64,000 nt of DNA from an uncultured Alphaproteobacteria bacterium (GTDB lineage: Bacteria; Pseudomonadota; Alphaproteobacteria; Rs-D84). The stretch lies in assembly GCA_944392775.1 (NCBI GenBank), contig CALXXV010000006.1:153270-217269 (forward strand), given 5' to 3'. The notes beneath the pieces are model-generated. The model made no database searches. It was not told the origin of the DNA and worked only from the letters and a program-made list of their open reading frames with translations. Shown one piece after another: positions 40,605 through 44,767 of the stretch; the first letter of the stretch is position 1; every line of letters begins with the position of its first letter. The position numbers and the translations under genes were made by a program.

Positions 40605-43019
40605 TTATAAATTACCAGCTCCTTGCTTTTTCAAGTACTCTTCAACAAAGTTATTACCATATTGTTTATATAATTCTTCCGCTAATAAAACTGAAGAACG
40701 ACCAGACTCAAATAAACGAAGCATATTTCCAAGTCCACCAAGTTCAGTATTTAAAATAACAGATTCCCCATTAACTGGTCTTGATAACAGAACAGCACGT
40801 TTTAAATTTGGATATGCTTTTCCTTGAATGAAAGCCATTTCCAGAGGATTCAAATTCCAATGTGCATAATCATTAACATCTGCAGCAGGATTTCTAAAGA
40901 ATAAAACAGTCTGGGCTTGTCCACGAACTACATCACCGATACCTAATTTATCAAGAACATTAGCGCGTTGGAAAGCGACCATATAAGCCTGACGATTTTT
41001 ACGACCTTCTTGTAAACCTGCTATAAAATTATCACGGAACATTTTATTTTCTAACATAGGTGCCGTTTCATCGATCATAATTAATGAAGGATTTCCTCCA
41101 GATACTGTTACATTATTTATTCTATGTAAAATATAAGAAATTACAGCTGGTGCTAAAACTTCATCTTGTAAAATTTCTGTAAAATCAAAAGTAGTAAGTC
41201 TTGAATCTAAATCTAACGTATCAGCAGTTTCATTAAACATATCACCATACTGTAAAGGATCGACCCACTTTTTAAGTGCGGCGCGCATATTACCCGAAGA
41301 TGAAAAACAGCTTTCCCATAAATTTTTAAGTAACCTATCCTCTGTTTTTAAATAATCAAAATTCACAGAAACAGCACGTGCAATTTCATCTGCCGAATTT
41401 GGATCATTTTGTCCAGAAATCATTGCCAGCCAACGACGCAGAAAAGCCCTGTTTCCAGCATTATCCTGCATTTTTAACGGATTCAAATGTGTTTGAAAAT
41501 CTATTAAAGATTTTTCTTTCTCTTTACATTGCATAGTAATATACTTACCACCAACAGCCAAAGTGAATATTTCTGCACCTTTATTTCTATCAAAAAAGAA
41601 TGCTTTCAATTTTTTATGACGTAAAGATTGAGCAATCAAAAACGAGAATAAAGTAGTTTTACCACCACCAGTTGGACCTATTGTAAGCGTATGTCCTACT
41701 GCTGCAGGTTTATCAGAAACATGAAATTGAAATTGATAAGGTGTTCCTTGTGCAGTTGGGAAAATAACAAGTGGTCCTTGCCCCCAGTCACTATTAGTTA
41801 CCCCAGTCGGTTGACTAGACATTGGTATACTAATTGCTGCTGTTCTAGATAACATTTTAAAACTGCGTGGGAATACATCAAAACCAGGTATTTGTGCAAA
41901 CCACGATACTTTAGAAGCAAAAGTTTCTACTACCGGAGAAACACCGAACGAAGCAGATATTTTTTTAAATTCGTCTATAAAATTCTGCAAAGATTCTTCT
42001 GTTGAACCAAAAATTATGAATAAAGGATAATAATTTACCAATGTCTGATTTCCAGAAATATTTTCATCCATAGCCATCTTAGCTTCTGAAATTTGTTCTT
42101 CAGAAGAAAACTCATTTTCTTCTATTGTAGCTTTTTTCTGGCGAAAAACTTTTTCTACATCAGCTGTACCCATTATACCGAATGCATTCATACATATCAT
42201 TTCCGTCTGAATTGTAGATATACTATTAAAAAAGTCTTCATCTAAATAATCAGGTGAAAATTTAAAAGAAATCATTGCTGCAAAAGATTGTTTATTTCCA
42301 CTTAAATACTTTACTAAACCGTCTTTTAAAAATATGACATCATCAACAGTTGTAAGATCTGATATACGTTGATCACATACTATCGGTGAAGGTTTAGTAA
42401 TAGGAGATAATATACGTCCAAAAAACTTTGCCATATTGTTTTTTGAATCATTACGTAATACAGAAGGTCTATACGCAGCTAAAATAGATTCTAAATAATT
42501 TCCGTACTGATTTAGTTTTTCACGGGCATTATTACCATTTACAGATAATATAACATAATAACTATTATTAAAAATTCTTAAACCTTGTTCATGCCATTTA
42601 TCATATATTTTTTGTAAAATAGGTTGATCAAATTCATAATCATTATTTTCTTCAACAGCATCACGTATCATATAAAATCGTAAAAATACATTTGGATCGC
42701 GAATTTGATTAAATAATTGTGAACGTAGATCTAAAAATTTTTCTTTTGTTGCATTATCTTGCATACTTGTCTGTACACCATCAATTTTATAAACACGAAT
42801 AATACTTCCATCAGTTAAAACCATAGAATTATCAGTATAAACCGTTTTAAAAGGTAAATATTGAGAATATTTTGCATAACTAAACTTCGGAAATATTTTT
42901 TTTGATAATATAGGTATGTAAATCATCAAAATTATAAAAAGAAAAACAACCGCCATAATTAAAATTATGGAAGAAATTGGAAAATTACCACCTACAAAAT
43001 AATCAAAAAAACCATTCAT
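40605..43019 (-). CDS. virB4: Type IV secretion ATPase VirB4 (CagE/TrbE family)
   Basis: An 804-residue ATPase. An N-terminal hydrophobic segment (about 16-38) is followed by the CagE_TrbE_VirB domain. Walker A GPTGGGKTT near 446-454, Walker B LIMIDETAPML, then a conserved arginine-rich stretch (GLQEGRKNRQAYMVAFQRA). VirB4 energises assembly and transport in type IV secretion systems. Only virB3 is adjacent; no virB6, virB8-11 or virD4 is present within the window, so other parts must lie elsewhere or the pair is relic. Confidence 0.92.
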   Translation of the reverse strand: MNGFFDYFVGGNFPISSIILIMAVVFLFIILMIYIPILSKKIFPKFSYAKYSQYLPFKTVYTDNSMVLTDGSIIRVYKIDGVQTSMQDNATKEKFLDLRSQLFNQIRDPNVFLRFYMIRDAVEENNDYEFDQPILQKIYDKWHEQGLRIFNNSYYVILSVNGNNAREKLNQYGNYLESILAAYRPSVLRNDSKNNMAKFFGRILSPITKPSPIVCDQRISDLTTVDDVIFLKDGLVKYLSGNKQSFAAMISFKFSPDYLDEDFFNSISTIQTEMICMNAFGIMGTADVEKVFRQKKATIEENEFSSEEQISEAKMAMDENISGNQTLVNYYPLFIIFGSTEESLQNFIDEFKKISASFGVSPVVETFASKVSWFAQIPGFDVFPRSFKMLSRTAAISIPMSSQPTGVTNSDWGQGPLVIFPTAQGTPYQFQFHVSDKPAAVGHTLTIGPTGGGKTTLFSFLIAQSLRHKKLKAFFFDRNKGAEIFTLAVGGKYITMQCKEKEKSLIDFQTHLNPLKMQDNAGNRAFLRRWLAMISGQNDPNSADEIARAVSVNFDYLKTEDRLLKNLWESCFSSSGNMRAALKKWVDPLQYGDMFNETADTLDLDSRLTTFDFTEILQDEVLAPAVISYILHRINNVTVSGGNPSLIMIDETAPMLENKMFRDNFIAGLQEGRKNRQAYMVAFQRANVLDKLGIGDVVRGQAQTVLFFRNPAADVNDYAHWNLNPLEMAFIQGKAYPNLKRAVLLSRPVNGESVILNTELGGLGNMLRLFESGRSSVLLAEELYKQYGNNFVEEYLKKQGAGNL

Positions 43020-43020
43020 T

Positions 43021-43317
43021 TTAAGCTGCTAATCTCCCTGGAATTTTTTTTATAAATAGTTGTATTTTAGACGAAATTATTTGTCCTAATTGTGGTTCTT
43101 TTTTAGAAAAGAAAGCCAAAATCATATGAACAATACATACAGAAATTAAGAAATATAACGGGGATATAGAGCTATTGAACCCATAAAAAAGCAAACCTAA
43201 TACAAAAAAAACTATAAAAATAATAAATTGAACCGCAAAATTTATCACAGCAAGCGAATAAGGCACATAAAAAATACGTGCAGGGTTTGCCAATGCTTTT
43301 AATACTTGTTGTTTCAT
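43021..43317 (-). CDS. virB3: Type IV secretion protein VirB3
   Basis: A 98-residue inner-membrane protein with two transmembrane helices near 22-46 and 50-68 and a basic tail, the usual VirB3 size and topology. LKALANPARIFYVPYSLAVINF matches the VirB3 N-terminal region (L-x-RPxMxxGVPY). It ends one base before virB4, the conserved virB3-virB4 order. First gene of a leftward unit that starts at the candidate origin. Confidence 0.85.
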   Translation of the reverse strand: MKQQVLKALANPARIFYVPYSLAVINFAVQFIIFIVFFVLGLLFYGFNSSISPLYFLISVCIVHMILAFFSKKEPQLGQIISSKIQLFIKKIPGRLAA

Positions 43318-43637
43318 TTTTAGATATACCCTCTCCCCATTGCTTGAATTATAACAATTTCAACAGTTTTCAACAAGTATAAAAAACAAAAAACATTTTT
43401 TGTTAAAAATGTTGAAAAAATATAAATTTTTAAACTGTTTATAAATCTAAATTATTTTTAACAAATAATATAAAAATCCCTTAAATCTAAGAAAAAATTG
43501 TTAAAAACCTGTTAAAAAAAATATAAAAACCTTTTTCAACAAAAATAACAAACACAATAAAAACAACAAAAACATATAATAAATATTTGATTTTTTATAA
43601 AAAGCGTTTATAATTAGCCCGTAAAAAGGATTTTAAT
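43318..43637. other. Candidate chromosomal replication origin (oriC)
   Basis: A 320-base gene-free, strongly AT-rich stretch. Eight copies of a nonamer TTTTYAACA (one ATTTCAACA) lie at 43357, 43367, 43401(-), 43410(-), 43455, 43499(-), 43510(-) and 43533. They differ from the DnaA box TTWTNCACA only at the sixth base. A TTAA-N7-TTAA, the CtrA-type site, spans 43501-43515. By eye the plus strand is C- and A-rich to the left and G- and T-rich to the right irrespective of gene direction (for example the minus-strand gene at 44764-45444 still shows G over C on plus), as expected where leading strands diverge. dnaA is not adjacent. Skew was judged from samples, not computed. Confidence 0.65.
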
Positions 43638-43772
43638 ATGAAATTTTTAAGTTCATTAAAAGCTTGGAAAAAACGCGGTAATGTAAAACAAATTCGCCGT
43701 GGTAAGCAAGTTATTTTAATAGATCCAGCAAATCCTAAATTAAAGGCTAAGCAGGGTTTTAAAAAGAAATAA
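43638..43772 (+). CDS. rpmJ: 50S ribosomal protein L36
   Basis: A 44-residue basic protein. MKFLSSLKAWKKR, QIRRGKQVILIDPANPKLKAKQG align with the cysteine-free type-B L36 (YkgO-like: MKxRxSLKxLKxR ... RRxGxxYxINxxNPxFKARQG). It lacks the zinc-ribbon cysteines of type-A L36, as usual for Alphaproteobacteria. AAGGA lies eight bases before the ATG. Its own terminator follows, so it is monocistronic and immediately right of the candidate origin. Confidence 0.9.
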   Translation: MKFLSSLKAWKKRGNVKQIRRGKQVILIDPANPKLKAKQGFKKK

Positions 43773-43825: not shown

Positions 43826-44767
43826 ATGGATGTTAAAAATATTTTATCTTTAATAGATAAGTATATATTAAAATATAAAAACGAAAAAAATCCAAAAGAT
43901 GAAACCATTTATAAATTAACTTCGCAAGAAGTTGCAAGTATGGACGATAGGTTTATTAGTAACGAAAAATCAAGGGTATATTTTTGTTTTTATAAATTTA
44001 CTCCGGATAGATATGATATTGAAGGTGCGGCTCAAGAATTTGCTAGTGCATTTTTTATAAATGGTGATTTTTTACATGATAATAAAATGAATTTAGAAAT
44101 GAATGTTGTTATGCCTGTTAGAGTTGATGGTAATGATATTTATATAGACAAGGCAATGATGGCAGAAATTGTATCACATGAATTGATGCATGCATATAGG
44201 AAATATAACGAAATTTTAGCAGGACATTATAAATGGGCGTCACCTGTTATAGATTTTTTTAAAAGTAAATTTTCTGATAAAAAGTATACAATGACGCAAA
44301 GATATCATTCTTATGAAAATACTACACCCGGTAATACTAAAGAAAATAAAATTGTAAAAAAAATGCAATGGGTTGGGTATACTTTTGTTGAAGATGAAAT
44401 GTTTGCTAATCTTGCTGGTATAAAAGTATTTTTAGCTGCAGGTGGTAATATAAATGAAAGTCGTGCAATTCTATTAGTAAAAGAAATAAAAGATTATTTA
44501 AAAGATATAGAGCAAAATGCTACAGAAGAGGATTGGTTAAGATGTATGAATAAAACGTCTTACATATCAGTCCGTAAAAATGAAAATGTAAATCACTTTC
44601 GTAATCGTTGGTTAGCTTATTATAAAGATAGAATTTTACGTTTTGATAAAGAAGTTGAAAAAATTAAAAAGAATAAATCTGTTAACAAATTTAAGACCGG
44701 TCAGGCAAAAATATTATCAAAAGCAAATAAAGAAATATCAATAAATACCACATATGAAAGAGATTAA
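43826..44767 (+). CDS. Zincin-like protein with HExxH motif, function unknown
   Basis: A 313-residue protein with no signal peptide. MAEIVSHELMHAYRKYNE is a clear HExxH zinc site in a helix; a possible third ligand is the glutamate of FVEDEMFANLAGIK about 80 residues later, the gluzincin arrangement. The C-terminal 60 residues are lysine-rich. The base composition fits neighbouring rightward genes. It stands alone between rpmJ and a convergent SufD-like gene. A peptidase activity is likely but the substrate is unknown; toxin or effector roles are not supported by visible features. Confidence 0.75.
   Translation: MDVKNILSLIDKYILKYKNEKNPKDETIYKLTSQEVASMDDRFISNEKSRVYFCFYKFTPDRYDIEGAAQEFASAFFINGDFLHDNKMNLEMNVVMPVRVDGNDIYIDKAMMAEIVSHELMHAYRKYNEILAGHYKWASPVIDFFKSKFSDKKYTMTQRYHSYENTTPGNTKENKIVKKMQWVGYTFVEDEMFANLAGIKVFLAAGGNINESRAILLVKEIKDYLKDIEQNATEEDWLRCMNKTSYISVRKNENVNHFRNRWLAYYKDRILRFDKEVEKIKKNKSVNKFKTGQAKILSKANKEISINTTYERD

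What the first reader, a model, noticed from the sequence alone, without database searches (positions are those of the whole stretch)
43318..43637. Candidate chromosomal origin marked by a composition flip and eight DnaA-box-like nonamers
Within 320 AT-rich bases there are eight TTTTYAACA-type nonamers in both orientations, one change from TTWTNCACA, plus a TTAA-N7-TTAA CtrA-like site. Sampled lines show C over G on the plus strand to the left and G over C to the right, regardless of gene direction, the polarity expected at an origin. If so, this lineage uses a shifted DnaA box with A at position six.
Basis: partly seen in the sequence, partly recalled or inferred. Interest (0 to 1): 0.75.

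Follow-up and report, generated by a model that had tools for sequence, protein, structure and literature searches.

The report
Replication origin with altered DnaA boxes
The 320-base gap between virB3 and rpmJ is almost certainly where chromosome copying starts in these small-genome gut bacteria (Candidatus Enterousia), and its DnaA-binding sites carry an A where nearly all bacteria have a C, a change that can also be seen halfway through in sister species.

Summary
The virB3-rpmJ intergenic region (43318-43637) has seven exact TTTTYAACA nonamers plus ATTTCAACA at 43357. Shuffles average 0.17 and never exceeded 3, and no comparable cluster was seen elsewhere in this genome. Strand-corrected fourfold-site GC skew switches at contig position 197.0 kb (support 196.5-198.0); the cluster is at 196,587-196,906. 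Two further Enterousia genomes switch at the same locus. The box cluster is present in all 80 related loci fetched, so this is the oriC. Position 6 of the eight aligned boxes is A in 97% of 460 boxes. In a sister genus, four origin boxes beside parB are TTATKCACA in two species, TTATTAACA in three and mixed in one, so A6 nonamers are DnaA boxes by homology. DnaA has Ala at E. coli position 435 in every A6 genome with a DnaA sequence, but also in the C6 ones, so it may be permissive and is not sufficient. The CtrA part of the claim fails: no CtrA-type domain was found and the site is not conserved. A6 boxes were already proposed in Hominis-group mycoplasmas. New are the origin itself, the box shift in Alphaproteobacteria, and a C6/A6 series within one genus. 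No experiment was possible.

The parts
43318..43637 (.). oriC: intergenic region between virB3 and rpmJ, 18% G+C
   Evidence: box cluster, skew change point, conservation in 80 loci, least stable 300 bp of the contig
43357..43365 (+). DnaA box ATTTCAACA
   Evidence: aligned in relatives
43367..43375 (+). DnaA box TTTTCAACA; tandem with 43357, 10 bp apart
   Evidence: A6 in all 58 aligned sequences
43401..43409 (-). DnaA box TTTTTAACA; tandem with 43410
43410..43418 (-). DnaA box TTTTCAACA
43455..43463 (+). DnaA box TTTTTAACA
43499..43507 (-). DnaA box TTTTTAACA; tandem with 43510, 11 bp apart
   Evidence: A6 in all 58 aligned sequences
43510..43518 (-). DnaA box TTTTTAACA (TTATTAACA or TTATCAACA in most relatives)
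43533..43541 (+). DnaA box TTTTCAACA
43436..43444 (-). TTATAAACA, a possible weak box that is not conserved as a box in relatives
43580..43592 (-). IHF-consensus match AATCAAATATTTA (candidate only; a near-3' match in 24 of 58 sequences; overlaps the promoter)
   Evidence: three HU/IHF-family genes in the genome
43587..43614 (+). rpmJ promoter TTGATT-N16-TATAAT
   Evidence: same spacing in 58 of 58 sequences
43638..43772 (+). rpmJ (ribosomal protein bL36), right flank
   Evidence: Pfam L36, just under cut-off; present in 36 of 40 relatives
43021..43317 (-). virB3, left flank
   Evidence: Pfam VirB3
40605..43019 (-). virB4, conserved left neighbour
   Evidence: Pfam CagE_TrbE_VirB

Best explanation
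The region is the chromosomal replication origin (oriC) of a Candidatus Enterousia species (order Rs-D84, Alphaproteobacteria). DnaA, encoded 132 kb away, binds about eight boxes of consensus TTTTYAACA through domain IV. Three head-to-tail pairs spaced 9-11 bp (one helical turn) should nucleate a DnaA oligomer. The surrounding 82% A+T DNA, the least stable 300 bp of the contig, should then melt so that two forks leave in opposite directions. Shown here: location, box consensus, conservation, skew polarity. Inferred: DnaA binding, unwinding and helicase loading. The C-to-A shift at box position 6 is a lineage change in DnaA specificity; C6 and A6 boxes occupy the same aligned positions at a sister genus's origin. 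Loss of the base-contacting Thr435 (Ala here) is a plausible permissive step, unproven.
For: Box cluster far above chance. Fourfold-site GC change point at 197.0 kb versus a cluster at 196.6-196.9 kb, dLL 221. In the 1.0-Mb single-contig Enterousia chromosome the TA switch is supported at 597.5-600 kb and the keto best fit is 600 kb, against a cluster at 597,064; the fitted terminus is at 110-150 kb, roughly opposite. In a third genome TA and keto switch at 318-319 kb, where virB3 and the intergenic region lie. Box cluster upstream of virB3 in all 80 related loci; de novo top motif TGTTGAAA; A6 in 97% of 460 aligned boxes. Sister genus: homologous boxes C6, mixed or A6, with a GC4 step at that locus in four of four genomes. 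An A6 cluster also sits upstream of virB3-virB4 in another family.
Against: No experiment or read-depth data. The raw GC cumulative minimum is 27 kb to the right, and single-component fits differ in places: TA4 on the whole contig at 222.5 kb, GC4 in the 1.0-Mb chromosome at 660 kb. Ala435 also occurs in sister species with C6 boxes, so it cannot by itself explain the shift.
Confidence: 0.94

Rival explanations
1. The nonamers are operator sites of a transcription factor that controls the divergent virB3-virB4 and rpmJ promoters, and the origin is elsewhere.
For: The region is a divergent promoter region with a conserved rpmJ promoter.
Against: Strand-corrected skew switches at this spot in three Enterousia genomes. 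The homologous nonamers in a sister genus lie next to parB and DUF1653 with different neighbours, and there vary between canonical DnaA boxes and A6 boxes.
Confidence: 0.04
2. It is a DnaA-titration or DnaA-reactivation locus (datA- or DARS-like) a few kb from the real origin.
For: DnaA-box clusters exist outside origins in other bacteria (general knowledge); the skew cannot resolve better than about 1 kb.
Against: No other cluster in the genome; lowest duplex stability over 300 bp in the contig is here; the skew change point coincides within about 0.5 kb.
Confidence: 0.03
3. It is a CtrA-gated, Caulobacter-type origin.
For: One TTAA-N7-TTAA string at 43501.
Against: No Trans_reg_C domain in the genome while the control search finds it in Caulobacter; the string is TTAA..TTAA at the aligned position in 11 of 58 sequences and is formed by overlapping boxes.
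Confidence: 0.01

Closest known systems
Bacterial oriC with E. coli-type DnaA boxes (TTWTNCACA)
   Same: Cluster of 9-mers in both orientations in an AT-rich intergenic region at the skew switch; DnaA with HTH domain IV.
   Different: Box position 6 is A, not C; no canonical box in this region.
Caulobacter, Rickettsia and Wolbachia origins (hemE/COG1806 or hemE/COG1253 flanks, CtrA and IHF sites; PMC1914354)
   Same: Alphaproteobacterial, AT-rich intergenic origin with several DnaA boxes; dnaA not adjacent.
   Different: Flanks are virB3 and rpmJ; no CtrA; boxes are A6.
Hominis-group mycoplasmas (M. hominis, M. mobile, M. arthritidis), proposed DnaA box TTATTAACA (PMC2751442); relaxed Mollicutes consensus TTWTMHAMA (PMC3091866)
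   Same: A at position 6 of the box in a small AT-rich genome.
   Different: Unrelated phylum; there one or two boxes beside dnaA, here a cluster of eight far from dnaA, with a clear skew switch.
Epsilonproteobacterial origins (core TTCAC; PMC5043019)
   Same: A class-wide change in DnaA-box consensus tied to changes at DnaA position 435 and neighbours.
   Different: There position 5 is fixed as T and C6 is kept; here C6 is lost.
Origin of sister genus g4 (order Rs-D84), parB-DUF1653 intergenic region, found here
   Same: AT-rich DnaA-box cluster at a local GC-skew step; DnaA with Ala435.
   Different: Beside parB rather than virB3/rpmJ; boxes TTATTCACA, TTATTAACA or mixed by species.

Membership tests
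Bacterial chromosomal oriC | Cluster of DnaA-box-like 9-mers unique in the genome | tested here: met
Bacterial chromosomal oriC | Switch of strand composition with origin polarity at the site, corrected for gene direction | tested here: met
Bacterial chromosomal oriC | AT-rich, easily melted DNA | tested here: met
   18% G+C; lowest 300-bp duplex stability in the 291-kb contig
Bacterial chromosomal oriC | Conserved position and boxes in relatives | tested here: met
Bacterial chromosomal oriC | Initiation occurs here and DnaA binds and opens it | not testable with these tools
   needs read depth, footprinting or an unwinding assay
Canonical DnaA box TTWTNCACA | C at position 6 | tested here: not met
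   A in 97% of 460 aligned boxes, C in 2%
Caulobacter-type CtrA-controlled origin | CtrA present and TTAA-N7-TTAA sites conserved | tested here: not met
Caulobacter/Rickettsia-type origin | hemE with COG1806 or COG1253 as flanking genes | tested here: not met
   flanks are virB3 and rpmJ
Origin with IHF | Conserved IHF site and IHF genes | tested here: inconclusive
   consensus match near the 3' end in 24 of 58; three HU/IHF-family genes

The most novel reading that the evidence does not exclude
Within order Rs-D84, DnaA became tolerant at box position 6 (with Ala435), and all boxes of an origin then shifted from C6 to A6 in concert. The change may have happened more than once and is caught half-way in one sister species (three A6 boxes, one C6). 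The order would be a natural series for how an initiator and its sites change specificity together without stopping replication.
Probability: 0.5. Interest if true: 0.75.

Novelty: new variant of a known kind. Interest (0 to 1): 0.58.

Why it matters
It gives an origin position for an uncultured order of reduced-genome gut bacteria, which makes replication-rate estimates from metagenome coverage possible. Tools that search for TTWTNCACA would miss this origin. The C6, mixed and A6 origins of one sister genus, most with their DnaA sequence, allow a direct bench test of how DnaA and its boxes co-evolve.

Tried and rejected
CtrA gating: rejected. An origin beside parAB in Enterousia: parAB lies 40 kb to the right and listed box positions show no cluster there. 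P423 substitution (Thr/Ser/Ala in Enterousia) as the cause of A6: weakened, because sister-genus species with A6 boxes keep P423. Ala435 alone as the cause: not sufficient, because C6 species G026 and G030 have it too. parS: no TTNCACGTGNAA match near the origin, only two distant matches. The origin of family f2 (G029) by skew: inconclusive on a 31-kb contig. Origins of families f3, f5, f6 and of genera g9 and g10 were not located. The E. coli DnaA-box crystal-structure paper (PMC153737) is not held, so which residue touches base 6 could not be checked.

Full report
What was checked. The window is contig C6, 153,270-217,269, of an 860-kb, 96% complete genome. VirB4 relatives place it in Candidatus Enterousia, a reduced-genome gut lineage of order Rs-D84, Alphaproteobacteria (PMC12306168). 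The region 43318-43637 is the gap between virB3 (with virB4 beyond it, minus strand) and rpmJ (plus strand). It has 18% G+C.

Observation. Seven exact TTTTYAACA and one ATTTCAACA are present. Twenty thousand dinucleotide shuffles gave at most 3, mean 0.17. The other 14.8 kb of intergenic DNA on the 291-kb contig holds 3. The genome has 119 copies in all; of the 100 positions listed, none form another cluster, and tandem pairs within 30 bp occur only here. Canonical TTWTNCACA boxes do not cluster among the 100 of 142 positions listed.

Composition. On the whole contig, raw cumulative GC skew falls to about 197-224 kb and then rises. At fourfold-degenerate sites, with a term for gene direction, the GC change point is 197,000 (support 196,500-198,000, log-likelihood gain 221), and GC plus TA together also give 197,000. 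The cluster lies at 196,587-196,906. TA alone fits 222.5 kb on the whole contig but 196.7 kb on an 80-kb stretch around the cluster. In the 1.0-Mb single-contig chromosome of Ca. E. intestinigallinarum, sampled at 40%, the TA switch is supported at 597.5-600 kb and the combined best fit is 600 kb; the cluster is at 597,064 and the fitted terminus is roughly opposite, at 110-150 kb. GC alone gives 660 kb there. In a third genome the TA and combined switch is at 318-319 kb, where virB3 and the intergenic region lie.

Conservation. All 80 VirB4 loci fetched have 3-9 TTTTYAACA upstream of virB4, and rpmJ follows in nearly all that extend far enough. The most enriched 8-mer found without prior assumption is TGTTGAAA. 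Across eight aligned sites and 58 sequences, position 4 is T in 99.6%, position 6 is A in 97% and C in 2%, position 7 is A in 98%, position 8 is C in 97%; position 5 is mostly C or T. Three head-to-tail pairs are spaced 9-11 bp. The rpmJ promoter TTGATT-N16-TATAAT is present in 58 of 58. The region is the least stable 300-bp stretch of the contig.

A6 nonamers as DnaA boxes. In a sister genus (family f4) the gap after parA-parB, before DUF1653 where that gene was found, holds four boxes with nearly the same spacing in every species. They are TTATTCACA or TTATGCACA in G026 and G030, TTATTAACA in G032, G035 and G039, and three TTATTAACA plus one TTATTCACA in G034. Apart from position 5 of one box and unresolved N bases, position 6 is the only variable position. 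Fourfold GC skew steps up at that gap in four of four genomes tested (41.0 vs 41.4 kb, 63.5 vs 64.0, 29.0 vs 28.7, 67.5 vs 68.5), although on these short contigs the sign does not always reverse. A genome of family f2 (G029) has five A6 boxes directly upstream of virB3-virB4, so the virB3 position with A6 boxes is not limited to Enterousia; its contig is too short for a skew test.

DnaA. One dnaA gene is found, 132 kb from the origin, with domains I, III and IV. Every A6 genome with a DnaA sequence, and the C6 genomes G026 and G030, have Ala at E. coli position 435; no DnaA match was found for G039. In E. coli Thr435 binds specific bases and is required for DNA binding (PMC9638019, PMC4245941). 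Enterousia also lacks Pro423, but A6 species of the sister genus keep it. In that genus the C6 species have Ser428 and the A6 or mixed species have Asn428; with five sequences this is only a lead.

CtrA. The TTAA-N7-TTAA string at 43501 is made by two neighbouring boxes and is TTAA..TTAA in 11 of 58 sequences. No Trans_reg_C domain was found in the genome, while the control search finds it in Caulobacter. HU/IHF-family genes are present, and one IHF-consensus match overlaps the rpmJ promoter; its role is open.

Mechanism. Shown: position, site consensus, conservation, polarity, low stability. Inferred: DnaA oligomerises on the paired boxes, melts the AT-rich DNA and loads helicase for two opposite forks. 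The exact unwinding site is not identified.

Comparison. Alphaproteobacterial origins described before are flanked by hemE and use TTATNCACA with CtrA sites (PMC1914354). Changed box consensus is known in Epsilonproteobacteria (PMC5043019) and Thermotoga (PMC10316083). A6 boxes were proposed for Hominis-group mycoplasmas (PMC2751442). The A6 box is therefore not unprecedented; the alphaproteobacterial origin, its place at virB3, and the C6/A6 series in one genus appear new within the held literature.

Noticed in passing
L211 1381-1637, L212 1380-1637, L288 4337-4600, L265 1484-1750, L248 1484-1738, L260 1484-1730: Origin of sister genus g4 beside parB: four homologous boxes are all C6, mixed or all A6 depending on species, with a conserved terminator-like hairpin (AATCCCTG...GGGATT) between the boxes.
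   Followed up: partly
L289 6882-7071: Five A6 boxes directly upstream of virB3-virB4 in family f2 (G029); the other neighbour is a 230-aa protein and a Mur ligase, not rpmJ.
   Followed up: partly
G000 C6:236834-238068: parA-parB lie 40 kb right of the Enterousia origin; no consensus parS (TTNCACGTGNAA) near them on this contig.
   Followed up: partly
window 43826-44767: 313-aa protein with an HELMH (HExxH-type) motif and no Pfam match, next to rpmJ.
   Followed up: no
G000 C6: Single TTTTYAACA copies are mostly on the plus strand left of the origin (21 of 26) and minus strand right of it (11 of 16); probably in-frame GTT-GAA-AA codons and gene orientation.
   Followed up: no
G000 C6:196.9-222 kb: Fourfold TA skew of minus-strand genes stays negative for about 25 kb right of the origin, although GC skew has already switched.
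   Followed up: no
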